Virus record (IMG/VR): IMGVR_UViG_3300028608_000093
Coordinates: 1-21,641 of that record
Length of the DNA stretch: 21,641 bases
Origin: a virus
Strand: one strand, 5' to 3'
Notes under the pieces: model-generated
What the model saw: the letters and a program-made list of their open reading frames with translations, nothing else
Told to the model about the DNA's origin: nothing
Databases searched by the model: none
Position numbers and translations under genes: made by a program
Shown here: in pieces, positions 843 to 15,979 of the stretch
How the letters are laid out: every line of letters begins with the position of its first letter
Numbering within the stretch: the stretch's first letter is position 1

Positions 843-910
843 CCCAACCTCAGGACACTTCCCCGTCTTGATCAAACCTTGATGGTAACTCTGCATCTTC
901 GGTGCAAGTT

Positions 911-949
911 TTTGACTTGACAGGCTTTACACTCATCTTTGACTTGACA
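911..949 (+). promoter_or_regulatory. 12-bp direct repeat upstream of the secreted SGNH gene
   Basis: TTTGACTTGACA occurs exactly at 911-922 and again at 938-949, a 27-bp period. Each copy contains TTGACT and TTGACA, which resemble -35 hexamers, but I find no well-spaced -10. The second copy ends 18 bp before the GTG at 968. A regulator binding site or part of a promoter is a reasonable inference. Confidence 0.45.
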
Positions 950-967
950 AATCCAGATGGGGGAAAA

Positions 968-1726
968 GTGAGCCGGAAGACTCGACGTATGCGGTCGGCA
1001 GCTAAATGGCAGATCGCGGGGCTTACGGCTCTTGGGCTTGCAACGGTGGGCGTGGTGGCGGTGGCGGTAGCCCCGGACAAGACGGAGGCCACTGCTGGCC
1101 CGAACCTTGTGGCTCCCGTTGCTGCGGCGCCGGTCATTGCCCGCCCCGGCGTGAAGCTCGTAGACAATCCCGTGGTCCTCTTCGCTGGTGACTCGCTGTC
1201 TGATGGATGGTACGCGACCGAAGAGGTCAAGGGCTTCCGCCCCATCGTCTCCGGTGCGCTGACCAAGGCCCGCCCGTCCTCTACATTCGTCCAGGCGCAT
1301 AAGGCCGGCTACACCACGCAGCAGGTAGCGGACACCTTCCCGGTTCCTGAGGGCATCAACCTTGCCGTGGTCCAGCTCGGAACCAACGACGTCACGAAGA
1401 AGACCAACCCTGGCATGTTCGCCGGGCAGTACGCCGCGTACGTGGACGCCATCAAGTCGAAGAACCCGGATGCCGGGCTGATCTGCCTGGGCTCGTTCTT
1501 CCACGCCGCTGAGCAGTCCGACGCGATTGACAAGGTCATCGAGGCTGAGTGCAACAAGCACGACGGCTTCTATCTCGACATCACGGCCGTCTACGTCACC
1601 GCTGGTTACCGCGGCCCGGCAGGCACCCCGACATGGCTGGGTAAGTCCGACATGGGCCACCCGAACGATCTGGGACATGCACGCATCGCTGAGATGGTGC
1701 TGTCCCAGATCATCACCGAGGGCTAG
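968..1726 (+). CDS. secreted SGNH/GDSL-family hydrolase (accessory gene)
   Basis: This 252-residue protein starts at the GTG at 968, preceded by GGGGGAAAA; an earlier in-frame GTG at 902 would read through the repeat at 911-949. Residues 2-13 are basic (RKTRRMR), residues 14-35 form a hydrophobic helix, and an Ala/Pro-rich linker follows, so the protein should be secreted or membrane-anchored. SGNH blocks are present: GDS with Ser76 as nucleophile, GTND at 138-141, and DMGH at 228-231 giving the Asp/His pair. The family hydrolyses esters of lipids or of acylated sugars. It is on the opposite strand to the virion genes, near the att region, so it is probably a lysogen-expressed cargo gene altering the cell envelope. 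The substrate is not evident. Confidence 0.85.
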   Translation: MSRKTRRMRSAAKWQIAGLTALGLATVGVVAVAVAPDKTEATAGPNLVAPVAAAPVIARPGVKLVDNPVVLFAGDSLSDGWYATEEVKGFRPIVSGALTKARPSSTFVQAHKAGYTTQQVADTFPVPEGINLAVVQLGTNDVTKKTNPGMFAGQYAAYVDAIKSKNPDAGLICLGSFFHAAEQSDAIDKVIEAECNKHDGFYLDITAVYVTAGYRGPAGTPTWLGKSDMGHPNDLGHARIAEMVLSQIITEG

Positions 1727-2844
1727 AGCGACCGGAGCGTAGCGAACACGGCGGATGCCATATCGCTGTACCCCTGATCAGTCGGGTGCGCGCCGTCGTT
1801 CATCCATCCGGCGGCGTTGGATATTGCGTAGGACCCGAACCGTTCAAACACGTCGATGAATCCATACCCGGCCGATGCAGCAAGTGCCCGGCCCTGATCG
1901 GCGTACTGCGCTTCCAGCACCGGGTCATTGGCTGATGCCGGGTTGGATGGGACCACGGACATCAGGATCACGTCGCCGGATGCGGCTGCCGCAGCAGCGA
2001 TCAGGGTGACGTTGGTCAGCCAGGTCGCCGCCGTGACAGCCGCGCCCGCGTCGTTGATGCCGAGCATAAGCAGGGTCAGGTCCGGCGCGTAGGCCCGGAC
2101 CACGCTGAGGCTGTTGGTCGGGTTAGTGTCCGACTTCCACTGCGTGGTGGTCGAGGACGGGATACCCGCGTTGCCGACCCGGATGGACGACTCCGTTGTG
2201 AGGATCGGCTCAACACCGAAGATGAACACGTCCCCGCCGGTCTGCGCGATGGACAGCACGTGCCCGACGCCGGCCGTGGCCGTGACGCGTGCGACCTGCA
2301 CGGAGGCGCTGCCCGCGGTGCTCACGGTCGTTACGGCGCCGCCGTCCACGCTCAGTCCGATAGAGCCAAGCCCAGTGTTGCGGGAGTAGTAAACGTCGAA
2401 GGCGTCAGCGTTCGTGGTCGTGGTGAAGGTCAGGGGCGCCGAGGTTGCCGAGCCCTTGTATCCGGCGTTGTTCGCGAACCCGGTGGCGCTCTTGATCCAG
2501 CCGGCGCCAAGGCCCCAGCGGGTGTCGATGCTCGTGGAGCTAAGAAATGATGTGGGGATCGCGAGGCCCGTGCGCGCCGGGGCGTAGTAGGTGTTCAGCA
2601 TGTCCCTGAGCCGGGCCGGATAGCCCGTGGTCGAAGGGATCGGTGAGCCGCTGGACGTGGAGCCCCACGTGGTGGAGTCGCCCAGGCACAGGATCTTGGC
2701 CGTGCCGGAGTTGGTGCGGACCTTCGCCAGGGCCTTGCGGATCTTCCGGGTGGAGGTCGGGCCGATGTTGAACGAGCCCTGAGCGCGGGCGTATCGGACA
2801 TCGGCGGCGGACAGGGACAGTGCGGGGGCATCAAGGATTCCCAT
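1723..2844 (-). CDS. virion-type SGNH hydrolase / tail-associated esterase
   Basis: This 373-residue protein starts at an ATG with AGGAGG 6 nt upstream. It has no signal peptide. SGNH residues are clear: GDST with Ser57, GIND at 262-265, and DGAH at 350-353 for the catalytic Asp and His. Residues about 135-215 are Thr/Ser/Gly-rich and beta-like, probably an inserted sugar-binding or beta-sandwich domain. The N-terminus (MGILDAPALSLSAADVR) may be a tail-attachment segment. It is the last gene of the late operon, directly after a stalked minor tail protein, so I infer a tail fibre or tip enzyme that deacylates surface polysaccharide during adsorption. Its stop codon shares the palindrome CTAG (1723-1726) with the stop of the convergent SGNH gene. 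Confidence 0.8.
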   Translation of the reverse strand: MGILDAPALSLSAADVRYARAQGSFNIGPTSTRKIRKALAKVRTNSGTAKILCLGDSTTWGSTSSGSPIPSTTGYPARLRDMLNTYYAPARTGLAIPTSFLSSTSIDTRWGLGAGWIKSATGFANNAGYKGSATSAPLTFTTTTNADAFDVYYSRNTGLGSIGLSVDGGAVTTVSTAGSASVQVARVTATAGVGHVLSIAQTGGDVFIFGVEPILTTESSIRVGNAGIPSSTTTQWKSDTNPTNSLSVVRAYAPDLTLLMLGINDAGAAVTAATWLTNVTLIAAAAAASGDVILMSVVPSNPASANDPVLEAQYADQGRALAASAGYGFIDVFERFGSYAISNAAGWMNDGAHPTDQGYSDMASAVFATLRSL

Positions 2845-2854
2845 GGGTTGCCTC

Positions 2855-3631
2855 CTAGGCTACGGTGATCGCGGGTCGGGTGATGACAGCGCCGGAGGCG
2901 TTCCGGGTCACCGTGGGCTGCGTGTAGGTCTTGGTTACGGGTGAGCCGTAGGTGATCGTGTACGAGTCGATGGCGCCCGGAGTACCTGCCGAGGGTGTGC
3001 CGGCGTACGTGCCAACCGAGCCGTCAGGCCACACCACGCCGGCACCAGTCGCGGCGCCGTTCCCGTCCCTCGTGATGGCCCCGACGATCAGCGCGTCAGG
3101 GTTTCCGGCGAGCGAAAGGTATGAGACATAAGTGGCATTTAGTGCCCCTCGTGTGGCGGATGCCGGGGCGTTGATGAGGGTCTGCACCGCGGAGTCGGCC
3201 GGCGCCCCAACGAGTGCGGCGCTGGTGGCCGCCGCTGCTTCGCTTGCTGCTGCTGCGGCCGCCGCACTGTCGGCATCGGCCACAGCTTCGGCGAGTGATG
3301 CCGTAGCTGCTGCGCCCGCGGATGCGCCAGCGTTCTCGGCCGCCACCTGGGCCGCAACAGCCGCCGCCTTGATGCCTTCATACGATGTGAAGTAGCCGGT
3401 GAAGCTACCACCATGCCAGCCAACACGCTCGATGCTGGCGACGAACGCCGGACCGAAACCGTTCTTGCTCACGGTGATCGGGTTAGGCAGTGCCGCGCCC
3501 GTTACGTCCGTGATGGTGATCGGCGCCATGGTTTCGTCGGCGGGGTCGAAGATGATGATAGACGCGTTGGCGGCGACGTTCTCCGTATTGTTCGGGTCGG
3601 TGGCGAATATCGGGTCATAGGTGTACGCCAT
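2855..3631 (-). CDS. minor tail protein with Ala-rich stalk
   Basis: The product has 258 residues and an ATG start with AAGGAG 6 nt upstream. Residues 1-85 form an N-terminal domain rich in beta-type sequence, probably the virion attachment part. Residues about 87-145 are an almost continuous Ala-rich helix (KAAAVAAQVAAENAGASAG and onward), suggesting a trimeric coiled-coil stalk. Residues about 160-258 are Gly/Thr/Ala-rich beta sequence. This head-stalk-tip order is common in side fibres and tail spikes. The gene lies between the holin and the SGNH enzyme, and the two probably act together at the cell surface. A hairpin that covers its ribosome binding site lies just upstream. Confidence 0.7.
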   Translation of the reverse strand: MAYTYDPIFATDPNNTENVAANASIIIFDPADETMAPITITDVTGAALPNPITVSKNGFGPAFVASIERVGWHGGSFTGYFTSYEGIKAAAVAAQVAAENAGASAGAAATASLAEAVADADSAAAAAAASEAAAATSAALVGAPADSAVQTLINAPASATRGALNATYVSYLSLAGNPDALIVGAITRDGNGAATGAGVVWPDGSVGTYAGTPSAGTPGAIDSYTITYGSPVTKTYTQPTVTRNASGAVITRPAITVA

Positions 3632-3695: not shown

Positions 3696-3941
3696 TTAGG
3701 CTTCGTGCCGGCCGTCAGTAGTCGTCTCAGAGTTCGTCGCGGACGGGTTGCCATCCACGGCGCCGGACGCAACCGATGTCAGCACGGACAGCAGCGCGGC
3801 GGTTGCGGTCAGACCCAGGAGCTCAGGCCAATTCAGCGCCGTGATCCCGACAGTGCCCGCGCCGATTAGCAGGATGAGTGTCTGCGCTGCGGTCTTTACG
3901 GCTCGTTCGGTTGCGGCTTTCCAGAATGCGAGGGTGAACAT
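3696..3941 (-). CDS. holin, r1t-like
   Basis: This 81-residue protein has a short amphipathic N-terminus (FTLAFWKAATERAVKTAAQ), then two hydrophobic segments at about residues 16-36 and 41-60, and a polar acidic tail. That N-terminal pattern and the position beside the endolysin fit the r1t-type holins common in phages of Gram-positive bacteria. It would form the membrane lesion that times lysis and releases the endolysin. Its ATG overlaps the endolysin stop as TAATG, so translation is probably coupled to the endolysin. Confidence 0.85.
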   Translation of the reverse strand: MFTLAFWKAATERAVKTAAQTLILLIGAGTVGITALNWPELLGLTATAALLSVLTSVASGAVDGNPSATNSETTTDGRHEA

Positions 3942-4747
3942 TACTTGCCACCTGCCAAGCGCGCCGCCAGCGCGTCAACAAGCGCCTCTGCGTCAGCCTT
4001 CGGTAGACGGTCCGCCAGCGCAGTCGCCAGCGCGTCTACGTCCAGGTCAGGGGCGTTCTGCTCGGAAGCGTAGATGTCCGCCCGGAGCTGCTTGAACCAG
4101 TTCATTACGCCGCGGCCGTCCTCCTTCTGCTCATAAAGGATCGTCGCCGGAACATGCTCGACGGCGGCCTTGGTGTTGCCCAGTTCGGTGCGTACCTGGT
4201 TGAGGTGGTCGATGGCGCTGCGGCCATCCTGAAACTCACCCTTGGTCCGGAGCCCCTGAATGGTGCCCTCGGCCGCGATCTGTACTAGTTCTTCCCTACT
4301 GAAACCTGCCAATGGGTCATCCTCCTCGGATGCTGGTGTGATGGTGCCTGAGTAGTTGATGCCGTCATTGCTGACGACTGGCGTGTCTTCTACGTCCTCG
4401 GTCCAGCCCCGGTAGGTGAGCGTCATGCCGTAGTAGGCGTAGAACGCTTCGAGGTGCGCGAGGTTCGGGTGATGGTACGGCTTATTGGACAGGTCACTGG
4501 TGGAGTAGCAGGACCCGTCCGGGGCGAGTAGCACGACGTGCCCCAGGGGTTCATCAACAAGGCCGTACCAGACGGGCACCCAGACACCGGGCGGGAAGTT
4601 CCGGTCCCGGTGCTGCGTCTTGGACCCGTTCCATGCCGCCGTTGCCGAACCGTAGCGCTTGGCTACGCCGAACGCTTCGTTGACATATGCCAAGCACCAG
4701 CCCGGCTTGCAGGGAATGTGTGGATTGGGGGTTACGAGTTGGATCAT
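3941..4747 (-). CDS. endolysin with N-terminal CHAP/NlpC-like cysteine hydrolase domain
   Basis: The product has 268 residues. Residues 1-120 look like a cysteine amidase/endopeptidase: the nucleophile is probably Cys18 in PGWCLAYV, with His70 in GHVVLL, and a YRGWTEDV ending typical of CHAP-type phage lysins. It would cut peptidoglycan stem peptides or cross-bridges after release by the holin. Residues about 140-268 are acidic and helical (two Asp/Ala-rich helices at the end) and show no wall-binding repeats I recognise. There is no signal peptide. It overlaps the gene upstream by ATGA and the holin downstream by TAATG, so the three are translationally coupled. The lysin class is clear; the exact bond cleaved is not. 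Confidence 0.8.
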   Translation of the reverse strand: MIQLVTPNPHIPCKPGWCLAYVNEAFGVAKRYGSATAAWNGSKTQHRDRNFPPGVWVPVWYGLVDEPLGHVVLLAPDGSCYSTSDLSNKPYHHPNLAHLEAFYAYYGMTLTYRGWTEDVEDTPVVSNDGINYSGTITPASEEDDPLAGFSREELVQIAAEGTIQGLRTKGEFQDGRSAIDHLNQVRTELGNTKAAVEHVPATILYEQKEDGRGVMNWFKQLRADIYASEQNAPDLDVDALATALADRLPKADAEALVDALAARLAGGK

Positions 4748-5640
4748 GGCGTTCCCCCGATAGGTGGCGTGATGGTTGTTCGGCAGGCGCCGCCGTCCTG
4801 CTTGGCGCCGTCCGTATAGGTGATGGCCCAGCGGCCGTCATCGCCGCAGTATGAGTTGGCAATGCCGCGGCCGGGCTCCCCTTGTGGTCCTCCAGGGCCT
4901 TCGGGTCCTCCCGGGCCGGGCACCGTGGAGTCCGAGCCGGAGGCGCCCCTGCACGCATCGTTAGCACAGAACTGCTGGACGGCGGCAAGGATAGCCTCCG
5001 CGCTTGGGGGCGGTCCCGTGCCACCACTGGGGCCAATGCAGATCCCCGGGGCGCAGTAAGCGGTTACGGCCGCTAGGACCATGTCAGGTGTTGGCTGAGC
5101 GGCCTTCCCGTCCGCGCCATTGGTGCCGTTGGTCCCGGCTGTTCCTTTGCATCTACCGTCCGAGCAGAACGCGGCGAACGCGGATGCGATGTCATCCGGG
5201 GTGGGCGGCTGCCCGTCTCGCCCCTTGCAGTTCCCGTCCGCGCAATACGAACGGAAGGCTTGGACGAGGTCTGCTTGCGAGGGCCCGCCTAGCGGTGCCG
5301 CTGGAGCAGTTGGCGCGATGGTCGGTTCGCCGGCCGCTTCCGCCCATTTTGCGCAGAGGTCCATATCGTAGATCTGCCGGTCGCCTTCGCCGCAGAGAGC
5401 CTTGCCGGCTTCCTTGGCGATCTCCTTTTTCTCACCCTGCTGCTGCTGGGCGAAGGTAGCGTTTGACGCCGCCAGCCGCTGATTGTCCGCAACCAGGAAG
5501 AGGCACACGACGGCGAAGATTACCGCCGCGACAGCCAGCCCAAGGATTAGCAGGTTCCGGCGCCGCGCCGCCTTATTTCGGCGGTTCAGGTCCGTCTCCT
5601 GCTCCTCAATGGCCTTGTCGAACTCTGACTCGTTACTCAT
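4744..5640 (-). CDS. membrane-anchored collagen-like protein with repeated Cys pairs
   Basis: This 298-residue protein starts at the ATG at 5640, with GGAGG 6 nt upstream; an earlier ATG would overlap that site. A basic segment (residues 20-29) precedes one transmembrane helix (about 29-50), predicting a short cytoplasmic N-terminus and an exported body. A Gln/Glu/Lys helix follows. Then come four repeats of a helix ending in [YF]C-x4-C-[KIR]-G, with Cys pairs at 133/138, 159/164, 196/201 and 225/230, joined by Gly-rich G-x-y linkers. A collagen-like stretch (about 241-258) leads to a C-terminal domain with Cys265 and Cys286. It sits between a membrane/coiled-coil gene and the endolysin, suggesting a role in lysis or the envelope; a virion part is possible. 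Confidence 0.75.
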   Translation of the reverse strand: MSNESEFDKAIEEQETDLNRRNKAARRRNLLILGLAVAAVIFAVVCLFLVADNQRLAASNATFAQQQQGEKKEIAKEAGKALCGEGDRQIYDMDLCAKWAEAAGEPTIAPTAPAAPLGGPSQADLVQAFRSYCADGNCKGRDGQPPTPDDIASAFAAFCSDGRCKGTAGTNGTNGADGKAAQPTPDMVLAAVTAYCAPGICIGPSGGTGPPPSAEAILAAVQQFCANDACRGASGSDSTVPGPGGPEGPGGPQGEPGRGIANSYCGDDGRWAITYTDGAKQDGGACRTTITPPIGGTP

Positions 5641-5911
5641 CGTCATCCTCCGGCCATTCCGCTGGATCGGGCCTGATGTCATGCGCCACTAGTTGTTCCC
5701 GCCAGCGGTCCCCCGCACGGGTGCGGAGTGAGAGCTTCCGGCGCAGTGCCGCGATGGTCTTCTTCAATTCCTCGATGCGGTCCTTGAGAGTCTGGATCAT
5801 CGCGGCCTCCCCCGAGTCACGCTTCTTGTCCGCCCGGTTGACGAGCCATGCGACTCCACCACCCATGACGCCAAGGAACCCCCCGAGGGGTATAAGCCAC
5901 TGAAGATCCAC
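5633..5911 (-). CDS. small membrane protein with coiled coil
   Basis: The product is 92 residues if started at the GTG at 5911, which has GGGGAGGA 7 nt upstream; the open frame extends further but would overlap the minor tail gene. Residues 3-24 are one hydrophobic membrane helix with a Gly-rich face. Residues about 37-65 are a Lys/Glu/Leu coiled coil (TLKDRIEELKKTIAALRRKL), and the end is very acidic. Its stop overlaps the start of the next gene by 8 nt (ATGAGTAA). As first gene of the lysis group it could be a second holin-like or spanin-like factor, or an assembly partner of the next membrane protein. I do not recognise a named family. Confidence 0.7.
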   Translation of the reverse strand: MDLQWLIPLGGFLGVMGGGVAWLVNRADKKRDSGEAAMIQTLKDRIEELKKTIAALRRKLSLRTRAGDRWREQLVAHDIRPDPAEWPEDDDE

Positions 5912-5925
5912 ATTGGCGTCCTCCC

Positions 5926-6834
5926 CTAGTAGCCGACTGCGATATACGAGACTTTGAGGGTCAAGCTCGCAAGCGCGCTGCCGTTCGGGTTCAGGAAGCG
6001 CACGCAAACTTTGGTGCGGTCGGTCAGCTCGTTGATGATCTTGACGTTGATTGCGCCGAAGCCGCCCGTTGATTGGGCGTCCGTGATGGTGATCGCGGTC
6101 AGTGCCGATGGGAACGCTGTGGGGAACGTGTAGATCACGTCACCGTTGGCGTTCGTGGCGGGGAATACCCGTGTTTCAGCCTTGATGATGGGGGTGCTTG
6201 AGGATTGGCCGGCGTCAACACCTGGCGGCGTACTGCCGGACCATTCGGGGGTGTCGTTCGCGCCAACCCGTCGCGTCCACGTGGTGCCGCCGATGGTAAT
6301 CTGCGTGCCAGTCGAGTTGAGGAAGGACCGCACAAGGTCATCGTTGGCGACAATCGCCCCGCCGTCGCCGGACCATGTGCGCAGGTCCACAATCGCGGTC
6401 GGCTGTGTCTGGCCGGCAGTGACCTGTACGAGGGCGATGGGCTGCTCGTCAATGTTGCCGGGTCCAGTCTGCCGGCCGCCTGGGATCGTCTTGGTTGATC
6501 CGCCGTTGACCTTCACGAATTTGGACTCGCCGCCAGTCGGGGTCCAGTCGCGGCGGACCGCGATCAGGTCCCAACGCGAGCCGGAACTAATCGTGTCGAG
6601 CTGGATGGTTTCGTTGTCCACGGTCTTATCCGTGACGCCGCAACCGAAGCCCTCGCCCGCGCCAATCGACACGGTGCGGTCCTGCCCGGCAACGGCAGTG
6701 ACCTTCCAGTGCAGCGGGGAGCGCACACCGTACTTAGCCGTTCCGATAGACGGGAAAGCATCAGCCCATGCCGTCTCGGTGTACGGGTTCACCGTGGTCG
6801 TGTCATAGCCGTGAGAAGTGAATGTGACTGCCAC
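5926..6834 (-). CDS. minor tail protein
   Basis: This 302-residue protein starts at a GTG that shares its G with the stop of the gene upstream (TAGTG), with AGGAGG 7 nt before it. The sequence is beta-rich. Residues 1-150 resemble the N-terminal domain of tail-tip/baseplate proteins in actinophages (KWKVTA-type strands, TVSIGAGEGFG, WDLIAVRRDW, a GPG loop and QPIALVQVTAG). A linker follows and then a C-terminal beta domain (about 210-302) with ITITDAQ and VKIINEL. It follows the Gp37/Tal-like protein, so it is probably part of the tail tip and may bind the host. The exact role is not shown by sequence. Confidence 0.75.
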   Translation of the reverse strand: MAVTFTSHGYDTTTVNPYTETAWADAFPSIGTAKYGVRSPLHWKVTAVAGQDRTVSIGAGEGFGCGVTDKTVDNETIQLDTISSGSRWDLIAVRRDWTPTGGESKFVKVNGGSTKTIPGGRQTGPGNIDEQPIALVQVTAGQTQPTAIVDLRTWSGDGGAIVANDDLVRSFLNSTGTQITIGGTTWTRRVGANDTPEWSGSTPPGVDAGQSSSTPIIKAETRVFPATNANGDVIYTFPTAFPSALTAITITDAQSTGGFGAINVKIINELTDRTKVCVRFLNPNGSALASLTLKVSYIAVGY

Positions 6835-8947: not shown

Positions 8948-11900
8948 TTACTGGTAGACCGCTTGCGCGTCACGCTGCTTGTTGAGGATGACTCGCGCCA
9001 GCTCGGTTTCGTCCCGGACGTGGATCTCGCCGTAGTTATTAAACCCGCCATGAGACTGCCCTGAGTTGCCCGCGGCCAGCCGACTGATGTCCGCCCACTG
9101 CCGCGGGTTGAGGATCGCCTCGGGCTTGCCGGTGCGATTCACTACCTGCGAGATACCGGGAGGCAGGATGCCGCCCAGGTCATACAGTGCCGGACCCGCC
9201 GCGGAACCCCTGCCGCCGGTAATGAGATCGGAGACGCTACCGAACAGCTTCTTACCGATACCGATAGCAAGGTCGGCGATCATGCCAGCCGCCGGGAACG
9301 CCTCACGGAACTTCGCCAACAGCCCGTCGATGATGCCCGCCAGCGGATTGAAGCCGCCGCCCGAAGGCGCGCCAGCACCGGACAGGTAACCGTGCGGGTC
9401 AACATCATTCGGCCAGCCCCCCGCGAACGTCCCGAAGTGCAGGTGAGGACCAGACGTAATGCCCGTGTTACCCGACAAAGCGATCTGCTGCCCAGCCCGG
9501 ACCATGTCACCGACCTTCACAGCCATCGAGGACAGGTGAGCGAACCACGACTGAATACCGGAACCGCCGTCGACGTGGACCTCGTTGCCACCCCACACCC
9601 CCGGAGCCTGAACGCCGGGCCCAGACCAAGACACGCGTCCGTTCTCAGTAGCGAACACCGGAGTGCCGACCGACGCCGCATAGTCAACGCCCTTATGGAT
9701 CCGGTTATAACCCTGCGTCTCGATCATCTGCTTCAGCGGATTCACGAAGCCGCCCTTGGCGTATCCCGCCAACGACTTAGCCATGGCATAAAGGTTCGCC
9801 ACACCGGCCTTGCGAGTCTGCTCCTTGGTGAACACGAACTCGCCGCCGTGGACGATGCCCGCAGGCTCGTCCTTGGCGCCGTTACCCGTGTATCCGCCAT
9901 TCATGAACCCGGCAGGCAGTGCCACGCGAGGCAGCTTGTCGATGCCCGGCAGGATGCCAGCGACGGTGTTGAACGCGCCAATCAGGCCATCATTGATGAC
10001 CGTATCGACGACGAACCTCACCGGCATCTTGGCGATTTCCTGCAGCTTGTCCCAGGCCGTCTTGATGAATCCGACGCCGTCCTCGAATGCCTTCGGGATT
10101 GTCTTCGTGATGAAGTCCGAAAGCGTGTCAAAGACCGGCTTGATGACGTTGTCCCAAACCCACTTGATGGTGTTTCCGATGTTGTCGAAAACGGGCTTGA
10201 TCGCGTTGTTGTACAGCCAGTTGAAGGCATTCGGCAGGATAACCGTGAACACGTTCACCCAAGCGTCAAAGACGGGCTTGAGAAGCGTCTCCCAAACCCA
10301 CTTCGCCGCGTTGCCGATGGCGTCAAACACTGGCTTGATGACGCTGTCATGCAGCCAGTTCAGCGCGTTCGGGATTACCGTCTGGAATACGTACAGCCAC
10401 GCGTCAAACGTCGGCTTCAGCACGTTGTCCCAGACCCACTTGACCGCGTCCCCAATCCCGTCAAAGACCGGCCTTATAACGCTCTCGTAGAGCCATGTAA
10501 AGACGGCCGGAAGGGTGACCTGGAACATGTATGCCCACGCGTCGAACACCGGCTTGAGTACGTTGTCCCATACCCACGAAATGACCGAACCAATCCCGTC
10601 AAAGACGGGCTTGACGGCATTCTCGTAGAGCCAGTTAAAGATCGCACCAATTCCATTGACCGCCTCGACCATTCGATTCCAGAAGGCCATGAACAGCGGA
10701 ATCACGATGTAGGTGATCAGCGAAACGATGAGCTGGAAGATGCCGCGGAAGAACAGGTAGAAGCCGCCGACAATGACGCCGATAGAGTCGAACACCGGCT
10801 TGATGTAGGTCAGATAGAGCGCCGTGAAAACGTCGCCCACGAACTTGACCGCCGCCGCAATTCCATCGAACACCGGCTTGATGATCGATTCGTAAAGCCA
10901 CGTGAACACCGCGCCGATACCGTCGATGGTTGACTGAATGAACGATGCGATGTTGTCGAACACCGGCTTGATGATGTCCGTCCAGAGCCAGCTAAAGAAG
11001 CCGCCGACAGCCTTTATCGCGTTGTTCCAGGCTGGCATTGCCGTGTCCGTGAACCACGAAACAACGGCGCCGATAGCATCCTGGATCCACTGGAAAGAGT
11101 TAGTGACAGCCTCGGAAACCCACCGCATTGCAGCGTCCACGCCATCACGGAACCAACCAATATTGTTGTAGGCCCATACGAAGCCGGCCACCAGCGCGGC
11201 GATACCGGCAATGATCCAGCCAACCGGGCCCATTGCAATAAGCCACGCAGCCGCGATCTTGACGGCCTGGATGGTCGCCTGCGCGCCCATGAGGAGCCAG
11301 CCGCCAACCATGGCGACGACAGCCCACGAGTGTGTAAAGGCAGCCTTGATCGCCTCGGCCTGCGTGATCGTCCATGCGATCTTCTGCTGCACTGCGGACT
11401 TCATCGCCTCGACGCCAAGCGCTACCCAGTGCGGGATTAGGGAGACGACAATGAGACCGACAATGATCCCGATAGGGGCGCGCATGTCCCAGAGCCACTT
11501 GGCGACGTCTTTGCTAGTGTCGATGACCTTTTGGAGAGCGTCAGGGATCTTCTTGACTTCGTCACGGATGGTCAGCAGGAAGTCCACAAAGCGGGAATCC
11601 TCTTCCCACCCGAACGCGGACGTCAGCTTGCCAGTGAAGTCACCAGTGATCAGCAGGTCATAGAGGCCCTGCGCTCCGTCGCGGACCTTGAGGAGGAAGT
11701 CGACGAGCGGCGAATCCTCTTCCCAGCCAAAGGCCGCGGTGAGCTTGCCCGTAAAGTCGCCCTTGACCATGAGGTCATAGAGTCCTTGTGCGCCCGCGAG
11801 GGTCTTATCCAGGAAGGTGCCAATTGCGGCACCGGCAATCTTCGCGCCCTCTTCCAGCGGCTTCATCCACTCGATAGCGCCGGCAAAGAACTGCTGGATC

Positions 11901-12667
11901 TTCGGGTACACGCCGGACAGCAGCGAGGCACCGATACGGCCGACAGAGGCCATGGTGTTCTTGAACGCGCCCTTGAGCGTTTCGCCGGATTTGAGAGCGG
12001 CGCCGCCGAGGCCAGACTCCATCGCGTTGGCAAACGTGGCGAAGTCGATCTGCCCCTTCTCGGACATTTTGTACACTTCCTCGGCAGTCTTGCCGAGCTC
12101 CTTGCCGAGGAGTTGAACGATGGGAATGCCGGCATCGCCAAGCTGCGCCAAGATATCGCCCTGCACCTTATTGGATGCGGCGGCCTTGTTCCAGATGGCG
12201 CCCATCTCGCCGAGCCCCACGCCGGCAATGCTTGCGCTGTCACCAACGAGCCGCAGCACACGCTGTAGATCCTTGCCGGGCTTGATGCCAGACGCCACTA
12301 CGCCAGCGGCCACCGAAGCGGCCTCATCCAGCCCGAAAGCTGTGCCCTTCACCGATGCCATGGCATCGTTCATGATGCCCGTTACGGACTCGACCGAGTG
12401 ACCGAGGCCCGAGAGCTTAGCCTTGGCCTCCTCGATGGCCTGCAAGCGGCCGAAGCCTTTGGTGAGCGCTACACCCAGGGCTGCAACGGCGCCGCCAGCG
12501 ACGGCCACCGCGCCCGTCTTGAGCGCCCCGCCAAGGGCCGAGCCCATGCTCGACCCGGCGCGAGTACCCTCGGACGTTGCGACGCCGTCCAGCTCGCGCC
12601 CAACGGTCTGCTGCAAGTTCTTGAAGGTAGGCCGGATAAGTATGTCCGCTACGCCGATCGTGGGCAT
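8948..12667 (-). CDS. tape measure protein with M23 peptidase domain
   Basis: At 1239 residues this is the largest gene, as expected of a tape measure. The ATG at 12667 has AGGAGG 6 nt upstream. Residues about 60-280 match tape measure N-terminal modules (IKPGKDLQRVLRLVGDSA, QLGDAGIPIVQLLG). A 39-residue segment is tandemly duplicated (residues 293-370). Several hydrophobic helices follow (about 395-500), likely to cross the membrane during DNA entry. Residues 684-840 carry a 46-residue Trp-rich repeat. Residues about 980-1085 are an M23 metallopeptidase: HKGVD, WFAHL and GPHLHFG provide zinc ligands and catalytic His. The protein sets tail length, and the peptidase probably cuts peptidoglycan during infection. 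It is preceded by the frameshifted chaperones. Confidence 0.95.
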   Translation of the reverse strand: MPTIGVADILIRPTFKNLQQTVGRELDGVATSEGTRAGSSMGSALGGALKTGAVAVAGGAVAALGVALTKGFGRLQAIEEAKAKLSGLGHSVESVTGIMNDAMASVKGTAFGLDEAASVAAGVVASGIKPGKDLQRVLRLVGDSASIAGVGLGEMGAIWNKAAASNKVQGDILAQLGDAGIPIVQLLGKELGKTAEEVYKMSEKGQIDFATFANAMESGLGGAALKSGETLKGAFKNTMASVGRIGASLLSGVYPKIQQFFAGAIEWMKPLEEGAKIAGAAIGTFLDKTLAGAQGLYDLMVKGDFTGKLTAAFGWEEDSPLVDFLLKVRDGAQGLYDLLITGDFTGKLTSAFGWEEDSRFVDFLLTIRDEVKKIPDALQKVIDTSKDVAKWLWDMRAPIGIIVGLIVVSLIPHWVALGVEAMKSAVQQKIAWTITQAEAIKAAFTHSWAVVAMVGGWLLMGAQATIQAVKIAAAWLIAMGPVGWIIAGIAALVAGFVWAYNNIGWFRDGVDAAMRWVSEAVTNSFQWIQDAIGAVVSWFTDTAMPAWNNAIKAVGGFFSWLWTDIIKPVFDNIASFIQSTIDGIGAVFTWLYESIIKPVFDGIAAAVKFVGDVFTALYLTYIKPVFDSIGVIVGGFYLFFRGIFQLIVSLITYIVIPLFMAFWNRMVEAVNGIGAIFNWLYENAVKPVFDGIGSVISWVWDNVLKPVFDAWAYMFQVTLPAVFTWLYESVIRPVFDGIGDAVKWVWDNVLKPTFDAWLYVFQTVIPNALNWLHDSVIKPVFDAIGNAAKWVWETLLKPVFDAWVNVFTVILPNAFNWLYNNAIKPVFDNIGNTIKWVWDNVIKPVFDTLSDFITKTIPKAFEDGVGFIKTAWDKLQEIAKMPVRFVVDTVINDGLIGAFNTVAGILPGIDKLPRVALPAGFMNGGYTGNGAKDEPAGIVHGGEFVFTKEQTRKAGVANLYAMAKSLAGYAKGGFVNPLKQMIETQGYNRIHKGVDYAASVGTPVFATENGRVSWSGPGVQAPGVWGGNEVHVDGGSGIQSWFAHLSSMAVKVGDMVRAGQQIALSGNTGITSGPHLHFGTFAGGWPNDVDPHGYLSGAGAPSGGGFNPLAGIIDGLLAKFREAFPAAGMIADLAIGIGKKLFGSVSDLITGGRGSAAGPALYDLGGILPPGISQVVNRTGKPEAILNPRQWADISRLAAGNSGQSHGGFNNYGEIHVRDETELARVILNKQRDAQAVYQ
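10148..10618 (-). repeat. 46-residue coding repeat in the tape measure gene
   Basis: The segment codes for three full copies plus 19 residues of a 46-residue unit. Each unit has [IVL]-[KR]-P-[VT]-F-D twice: once before GIG...KWVWDN and once before AW...VF...P..NWLY. Further single copies of the KPVFD motif lie on both sides, eleven in all. The DNA copies have drifted, so the duplication is not recent. Confidence 0.8.
11558..11791 (-). repeat. 39-residue tandem duplication in the tape measure gene
   Basis: Two 117-nt units (11791-11675 and 11674-11558) encode nearly the same 39 residues: AQGLYDL, GDFTGKLT, AFGWEEDS and VDFLL are shared. The differences are mostly conservative (M/L, V/I, K/T, A/S). 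Confidence 0.85.
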
Positions 12668-15132: not shown

Positions 15133-15503
15133 TAGGTCATCACCAGCCCTATTTCCCAGCCATGCGGCCACTCGCCCGGCCTGCCGTCCACGGTCCACGT
15201 TCCGGCCATCCTCGCGCCCTCAGGCACCCGGATTCGGTCGGTGGGCAGGAACGTGAAGCCGGGATCGCGGTACAGGACAGCCGTGGAGCTCACGACGTCG
15301 GCCCGGTCAACAGGGTCAGCGGTCGCCCGCGGCCCAATCAGGCAGCCGGTTACAGGGATCTCCACCGGCGCTATCGGATTCCCCTTGGCGTCCTTGCCGC
15401 CGCCCCGCAGGACAGTAACGGCGGTCAGCCACGACTTCGGGAATCGCTTCACAAGGGAACGGCCCGGCGTGATGTAGTCCGGGAACGCGTAAACGACACC
15501 CAT
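15132..15503 (-). CDS. head-tail stopper-like protein
   Basis: This 123-residue protein begins with an ATG overlapping the previous stop by one base (TAATG). It is beta-rich, with AVTVLRGGGKDAKGNPI, VTGCLIGPRATADPVDRADVV, a FTFLPTDRIRVPEG strand and GTWTVDGRPGEWPHGWEIGL. That set is typical of small phage stopper proteins in this position, where DNA is held after packaging. The family is inferred mainly from size, fold pattern and gene order. Confidence 0.65.
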   Translation of the reverse strand: MGVVYAFPDYITPGRSLVKRFPKSWLTAVTVLRGGGKDAKGNPIAPVEIPVTGCLIGPRATADPVDRADVVSSTAVLYRDPGFTFLPTDRIRVPEGARMAGTWTVDGRPGEWPHGWEIGLVMT

Positions 15504-15979
15504 TAGGCGCCCTCGTAGATCGGCTCACCAGCGATGTCAGCACCACAAGAGCAGTACGTCGCACCGAATGCGAGGTTGCACCACGGGAGATGACTCGTAG
15601 TTGCGCACCCTGCGATCTGCACACCGAACGCCCGCTGCACCCCATCGCCAAGAGCCTTGCGCTCCTGCTTGGTGAGGTAGAAGTCGCCGGCAGGATTTAC
15701 CGGCTTCATCGTCACGGAGAACGGGCCGCCGGACTGCTGGACGCTTTCCATCCCATCCATACCGTCAGCGTCAGGCATGGCCCGGCGGACAACGGCGCAC
15801 ACGATCCGTCTGCGGGTTGCCGGCAAAGCCAGGCCCGCAGACGGAACCGTGTCCAGAATGAACTGGGAAGCGTCCTCCAGTAGGACCGTCGCGTGAGCGT
15901 CGGCCCCCACCGGGAAGTCAGGCCAGCGGGCTTTCAGTTCCGCCAATGTCGCAAACGGAAACGGTAGAACTTCGGCCAT
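15503..15979 (-). CDS. head-tail adaptor, Gp19/Gp15/Gp42-like
   Basis: The product has 158 residues and an ATG start with CAGGAGG upstream. The N-terminal TLAELKARWPDFP, the following LLEDASQFILDTVPS and the ATRRRIVCAVVRRAM helix are typical of the actinophage Gp19/Gp15/Gp42 adaptor family, which binds the portal ring. The C-terminus is unusual: residues 125-145 hold four Cys (C125, C134, C143, C145) with His130, which might bind a metal or form disulphides. It is the first of four consecutive connector genes. Confidence 0.75.
   Translation of the reverse strand: MAEVLPFPFATLAELKARWPDFPVGADAHATVLLEDASQFILDTVPSAGLALPATRRRIVCAVVRRAMPDADGMDGMESVQQSGGPFSVTMKPVNPAGDFYLTKQERKALGDGVQRAFGVQIAGCATTSHLPWCNLAFGATYCSCGADIAGEPIYEGA

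What the first reader, a model, noticed from the sequence alone, without database searches (positions are those of the whole stretch)
4744..5640. Membrane-anchored protein with four Cys-pair/collagen-like repeats inside the lysis group
Sequence: one transmembrane helix with a basic cytoplasmic side, then four units ending in [YF]C-x4-C with Gly-rich G-x-y linkers, a collagen-like run, and a C-terminal two-Cys domain. The period varies (Cys to Cys 26, 37 and 29 residues), so helical Cys units are spaced by flexible collagen-like linkers. Inference: an extended, disulphide-braced exported rod, long enough to reach into or through the cell wall, made with the endolysin. It could be a Gram-positive counterpart of a spanin, an adhesin left on the cell, or a superinfection block. 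I know of no named family with this order.
Basis: partly seen in the sequence, partly recalled or inferred. Interest (0 to 1): 0.62.

Follow-up and report, generated by a model that had tools for sequence, protein, structure and literature searches.

The report
Membrane-anchored disulphide/collagen rod beside phage endolysin
This Arthrobacter-type phage gene encodes a membrane-tethered, disulphide-stiffened rod that public databases call a tail protein, but it sits in the lysis gene group, was not found in virions of a relative, and most likely helps open the bacterial envelope at the end of infection.

Summary
Gene 4744-5640(-) encodes 298 aa: N-in transmembrane helix, long helix, four helix+[YF]C-x4-C units, Gly-x-y linkers, two-Cys cap. 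The protein belongs to a real family (here 'B'; partner 'A') in Arthrobacter, Microbacterium and other high-GC phages. Every A locus found has B next to it. All 26 aligned B proteins have exactly 12 or exactly 4 Cys after the membrane helix and none before it, as expected for an exported, disulphide-bonded domain. The pair sits with the endolysin and holin in at least three gene orders and beside unrelated endolysin types. The databases call it 'minor tail' or 'tail fiber'. In phage ArV2, virion mass spectrometry lists ORFs 15-18, 23 and 24 but not 19 (A), 20 (B), 21 (endolysin) or 22. Exception: in KellEzio the pair lies 22 kb from the endolysin. Best reading: a late envelope rod acting with A as an accessory lysis factor, analogous in place and topology (not in sequence) to corynephage LysZ. 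The exact mechanism is unproven.

The parts
4744..5640 (-). gene B: membrane-anchored rod, 298 aa (annotated 'minor tail protein' in relatives)
5491..5547 (-). single transmembrane helix of B (residues 32-50), N-in by positive-inside rule
5353..5394 (-). membrane-proximal Cys pair C83-C96, invariant in aligned relatives
4936..5283 (-). four helix + [YF]C-x4-C-x-G units with Gly-x-y linkers (residues 120-235)
4864..4917 (-). collagen-like Gly-x-y run (residues 242-259)
4780..4869 (-). two-Cys C-terminal cap, type I, three strands (residues 258-287)
5633..5911 (-). gene A: 92 aa, one TM near the N-terminus then coiled coil (GTG start), overlaps B by 8 nt; partner of B
3941..4747 (-). endolysin (phrog_12298 type, probable Cys/His amidase-peptidase); overlaps B by 4 nt
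   Evidence: invariant C18, H70; model poor
3696..3941 (-). holin, r1t type
   Evidence: PF16945 E 2e-25

Best explanation
Gene B makes a late, non-virion envelope protein. The basic N-terminus stays in the cytoplasm, one helix crosses the membrane, and the rest is exported, oxidised into disulphide pairs and held as a stiff stalk (collagen triplets and/or four disulphide-closed helical units) with a small two-Cys cap. It acts together with the co-encoded coiled-coil membrane protein A as an accessory lysis factor that works with the endolysin and holin. A collagen-only stalk of relatives would measure about 31-33 nm if fully triple-helical, roughly the thickness of a Gram-positive wall (my knowledge), so the cap could reach through the wall. 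Most likely step: once the endolysin has cut peptidoglycan, the rod engages and displaces wall or lipid-anchored glycopolymer, helping the envelope to open (a LysZ-like or spanin-like role). Shown here: gene anatomy, Cys pattern, A-B pairing, linkage to lysis genes. Reported by others: absence from the ArV2 virion table. Inferred: topology, disulphides, trimerisation, target and mechanism.
For: Same order A-B-endolysin-holin in annotated Arthrobacter phages and in myovirus ArV1. In Microbacterium phages the order is endolysin-A'-B-holin; in L158 it is GH25 endolysin-holin-A-B. The downstream endolysin changes type (M23, Amidase_2, GH25, CHAP+GH25, window type) while A-B stays. All 21 loci found with A alone as query have B next (one frameshifted). 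All 26 B proteins aligned: 0 Cys before the TM, exactly 12 or 4 after it; B is 4.4% Cys while the other window proteins are mostly 0-1.6% (one 3.2%). 49 of 54 B proteins are N-in by positive-inside. ArV2 virion MS Table 2 lists ORFs 15-18, 23, 24 but not 19-22, and the text says gp20 was not detectable (PMC4205034); gp20 has 9 tryptic peptides of 6-30 aa covering 55%. Neighbour scan: M23/Amidase_2/GH25 matched 17/7/3 of 81 neighbour proteins for B, against one GH25 and two PG_binding_1 matches in the shown rows among 108 neighbours of collagen-like ORFs without an N-terminal TM.
Against: In KellEzio the A-B pair sits after the tail genes, 22 kb from the endolysin, so linkage to lysis genes is not absolute. 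In most Arthrobacter phages the pair also abuts tail genes. The ArV2 text contradicts itself (one sentence counts gp20 among detected tail proteins), and non-detection is negative evidence from one phage. Eileen and GlobiWarming, in the same genus as Constance, lack B, so it is dispensable or replaceable. No experiment links B to lysis. The neighbour comparison was not blind: I chose some B neighbours knowing earlier endolysin hits.
Confidence: 0.5

Rival explanations
1. It is a minor tail protein or tail fibre, as annotated: the collagen-like stalk and cap form part of the virion and bind the host; the hydrophobic helix is an assembly or membrane-contact element.
For: SEA-PHAGES and RefSeq labels; PHROG family labels phrog_18350 and phrog_1806; next to tail genes, and in KellEzio only there; Gly-x-y stalks are common in tail fibres.
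Against: N-in TM anchor with basic side; strict even Cys count after the TM and none before it; absent from the ArV2 virion table while flanking tail genes on both sides are present; constant pairing with membrane protein A; follows the lysis genes through at least two rearrangements. Trixie gp7, the source of the ArV2 'tail fiber' label, has no TM and no Cys-pair architecture.
Confidence: 0.15
2. It regulates lysis timing: the exported domain senses envelope state or superinfection and A relays or controls the holin (antiholin or lysis-inhibition type).
For: Paired membrane proteins with cytoplasmic coil (A) and external rod (B) beside a separate holin; single-TM lysis proteins with timing roles are reported in mycobacteriophages (LysF1b, PMC13056207).
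Against: No sequence link to known antiholins; A is N-out/C-in by charge only; a long wall-spanning rod is not needed for holin control.
Confidence: 0.17
3. It is displayed on the infected cell or its debris to block the receptor (superinfection block, or protection of progeny from readsorption), with the swappable cap as the ligand.
For: Two interchangeable cap types; a stalk long enough to reach the surface.
Against: Both cap types occur in phages of the same host species; late lysis-cassette position is too late for ordinary exclusion; caps were not found in tail proteins without the TM; no pairing reason for A.
Confidence: 0.12

Closest known systems
phrog_18350 (tail fiber protein) and phrog_1806 (collagen like minor tail)
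   Same: TM + collagen-like relatives (KellEzio gp39 1.8e-104, ArV1 ORF025 2.4e-87, Constance 5e-17, EvePickles 1.5e-35) match over most of the profile; P0001 matches phrog_18350 over residues 21-280 at E 0.003
   Different: the label 'tail' is not supported by anatomy or by the ArV2 virion data; P0001 has four Cys-helix units in place of a pure collagen stalk
LysZ of Corynebacterium phages CL31 and Cog (described in PMC13056207 and PMC13148394; primary paper not held)
   Same: single-TM protein of the lysis cassette, described as N-in/C-out, spanin-like, larger than a holin, downstream of the holin (as B is in L158)
   Different: no sequence similarity between the B profile and clg49, the probable CL31 LysZ (score -0.2 bits); clg49 has no collagen or Cys units
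LysF1b (mycobacteriophages Girr and NBJ, PMC13056207)
   Same: gene A resembles it in architecture: one N-terminal TM, N-out/C-in, charged helical tail, lysis cassette
   Different: sequences not compared here; B has the opposite topology
Rz/Rz1 spanins
   Same: two overlapping genes for membrane proteins beside endolysin and holin
   Different: no outer-membrane lipoprotein partner; the two proteins have opposite predicted topology; Gram-positive host
Collagen-like bacterial adhesins (SclA, SclB, Lcl)
   Same: exported collagen-like stalk (far below curated cut-offs)
   Different: no LPXTG anchor; N-terminal TM anchor; phage lysis locus

Membership tests
tail fibre / minor tail protein | present in purified virions | tested here: not met
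   ArV2 homologue gp20 absent from virion MS Table 2 and stated as not detectable; flanking tail proteins present. One phage only; the paper's text is inconsistent.
tail fibre / minor tail protein | no export or membrane anchor | tested here: not met
   N-in TM in 49 of 54 by charge rule; Cys only after the TM, in even numbers, in 26 of 26
tail fibre / minor tail protein | gene lies among tail genes | tested here: inconclusive
   borders tail genes in Arthrobacter phages; only tail genes in KellEzio; inside the lysis cassette in Microbacterium phages and L158
phrog_18350 | profile match | tested here: inconclusive
   P0001 E 0.0033; close relatives 1e-17 to 1e-104
LysZ | single TM, N-in/C-out, in lysis cassette | tested here: met
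   for B; LysZ features as described in PMC13056207
LysZ | sequence homology | tested here: not met
   B profile against clg49, taken as probable LysZ by position: -0.2 bits; A profile also not significant
LysZ | deletion gives small plaques, rescued on hosts lacking the lipid-anchored glycan | not testable with these tools
   needs phage genetics
spanin (Rz/Rz1 or u-spanin) | links inner to outer membrane through a lipoprotein or second anchor | tested here: not met
   no second TM in B, and the TM Cys fits no lipobox and is not conserved; no lipoprotein gene was recognised in the group
collagen-like protein (PF01391) | Gly-x-y run matching the Pfam collagen model | tested here: inconclusive
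   P0001 below detection; relatives significant (4e-14, 2e-7, 8e-8)

The most novel reading that the evidence does not exclude
A and B form a two-protein lysis device of phages of Gram-positive, high-GC bacteria: a cytoplasmic coiled-coil membrane protein coupled to a trimeric disulphide/collagen rod that spans the cell wall, a functional counterpart of spanins or LysZ in hosts without an outer membrane, hidden under the label 'minor tail protein'.
Probability: 0.3. Interest if true: 0.75.

Novelty: new variant of a known kind. Interest (0 to 1): 0.55.

Why it matters
Phages of Gram-positive hosts were long thought to need only holin and endolysin. Recent work (LysZ, LysF1b) suggests further single-TM lysis proteins. 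This family gives a defined two-gene candidate present in many sequenced, culturable Arthrobacter and Microbacterium phages, with two stalk types and two cap types, so its role can be tested directly; it would also correct a widespread tail-protein annotation.

Tried and rejected
Pfam and NCBIfam searches of B: nothing significant. Foldseek of the B model against PDB: nothing below E 0.5; short reductase fragments only, judged meaningless. Scan of bacterial genome contigs with the B alignment: no relative confirmed, probably because the peptide pattern was too narrow. Trixie gp7, cited as the ArV2 gp20 homologue, rejected as a homologue. B or A as LysZ homologues: rejected by sequence. B as a lipoprotein: the TM Cys fits no lipobox and is not conserved. 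Structure of the window endolysin: model too poor to use (mean pLDDT 45); PDB sequence search empty. A' of the Microbacterium branch as Pfam XhlA: not found. ArV1 virion paper and the LysZ primary paper are not held. No paper found describing this family as a lysis protein.

Full report
What is there. The window is a 21.6 kb virus record whose minus strand carries a siphovirus-like head and tail module. In transcription order near the finding: tail gene 5926-6834, gene A 5633-5911, gene B 4744-5640, endolysin 3941-4747, holin 3696-3941 (PF16945, 2e-25), then further tail-like genes 2855-3631 and 1723-2844. B overlaps A by 8 nt and the endolysin by 4 nt.

B is a family. tblastn in annotated phages found 22 records, all Arthrobacter phages; more appeared with other members as query, including Microbacterium phages R1 and Leaf, KellEzio, Kitkat and ArV1, and many uncultured viral contigs. 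The stalk is either collagen-like only (ArV2, EvePickles, Cole, Hum25) or exactly four Cys-helix units with short collagen runs. Both cap types occur on both stalk types.

Export. In all 26 aligned B proteins there is no Cys before the TM and exactly 12 (unit type) or 4 (collagen type) after it. An even count kept through much divergence is expected of disulphide pairs formed outside the cytoplasm. 49 of 54 B proteins are N-in by the positive-inside rule. The model gives one continuous helix 2-83, helices just before each Cys pair, and a confident three-stranded cap; the chain path between units is not reliable (pTM 0.36).

Partner A. Searching with A alone found 21 viral loci; each has B immediately downstream, one of them frameshifted. 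ArV1's A was not annotated and lies in another frame just upstream of B. In Microbacterium phages the gene before B also encodes one TM and a coiled coil, but with the TM at the C-terminus. A-like proteins without B occur in Eileen, Kumotta and Salgado; by profile they are not significant matches.

Neighbourhood. A-B precedes endolysin and holin in the Arthrobacter branch, including contractile phage ArV1. The endolysin differs between phages: M23, Amidase_2, GH25, CHAP+GH25+LysM, and the window type whose relatives are annotated endolysin or lysin A. In R1 and Leaf the order is endolysin-A'-B-holin; in L158 it is GH25 endolysin-holin-A-B. B thus keeps to the lysis group while the order changes. 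As a rough control I scanned neighbours of collagen-like phage ORFs without an N-terminal TM: few lysins, mostly tail and head genes, against many lysins for B. This comparison was not blind.

Counter-example. In KellEzio A-B (gp38-gp39) lies at 29.1-30.1 kb after the tail genes; the endolysin is at 6.0 kb and a holin-like three-TM gene at 0.8 kb. The lysis genes are dispersed there, so the position is uninformative, but it does fit the tail reading.

Virion data. The ArV2 paper (PMC4205034) lists 14 virion proteins by mass spectrometry: ORFs 15-18 upstream and 23-24 downstream are present, while ORF19 (A), 20 (B), 21 (endolysin) and 22 (holin candidate) are not in the table. The authors state gp20 was not detectable, though one earlier sentence counts it as detected and another says ORF21 is present. 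gp20 offers nine ordinary tryptic peptides. The 'tail fiber' label for gp20 rests on Trixie gp7, which has no TM and looks like a plain collagen-like protein.

Mechanism. The best fit is an accessory lysis protein anchored in the membrane and reaching into or through the wall. Collagen stalks of 108-117 residues would be 31-33 nm as triple helices. The nearest reported function is LysZ, a single-TM lysis protein of Corynebacterium phages described as N-in/C-out and acting on membrane-anchored glycans (PMC13056207 and PMC13148394; the primary paper is not held). The probable CL31 LysZ, clg49, named here only by position, shows no sequence relation to B or A. So B may work like LysZ but is not a member of that family on present evidence. 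Whether B disrupts polymers, positions the endolysin, or regulates timing with A is open.

Verdict. Observation confirmed; interpretation partly supported and strengthened by comparative and proteomic evidence; database label 'minor tail protein' probably wrong; mechanism unproven.

Noticed in passing
902-1726 (+): An SGNH/GDSL hydrolase (Lipase_GDSL_2 7e-17) with an N-terminal hydrophobic segment, on the opposite strand to, and overlapping by 4 nt the end of, the SGNH tail-like protein 1723-2844 (-); Shoya has an esterase in the same opposite-strand position.
   Followed up: no
8948-12667 (-): The tape measure protein carries an M23/LytM-like segment near its C-terminus (IHKGVDYAA..GTPVFA); endolysin seeds also hit tape measure proteins of relatives.
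   Followed up: no
L186:8636-8932 (ArV1): Gene A of phage ArV1 is not annotated; the annotated ORF024 there is in a different frame.
   Followed up: partly
L009:7488-8123 (R1 gp65) and L191:6900-7415 (CL31 clg49): B of Microbacterium phage R1 is annotated 'lysin B' and the probable LysZ of CL31 is annotated 'exonuclease'; both look like misannotations.
   Followed up: partly
L120:6285-7060: B is split by a frameshift in this viral contig, with stalk and cap II continuing in another frame; the downstream CHAP-like endolysin also seems disturbed.
   Followed up: no
L178, L179, L180 (GlobiWarming, Eileen, Kumotta): Phages with the window's endolysin type lack B and have other small membrane proteins in its place, one of them an A-like coiled-coil protein.
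   Followed up: partly
15503-15979 (-): A 158 aa head-tail region protein with five Cys clustered toward its C-terminus (CATTSHLPWCNLAFGATYCSC).
   Followed up: no
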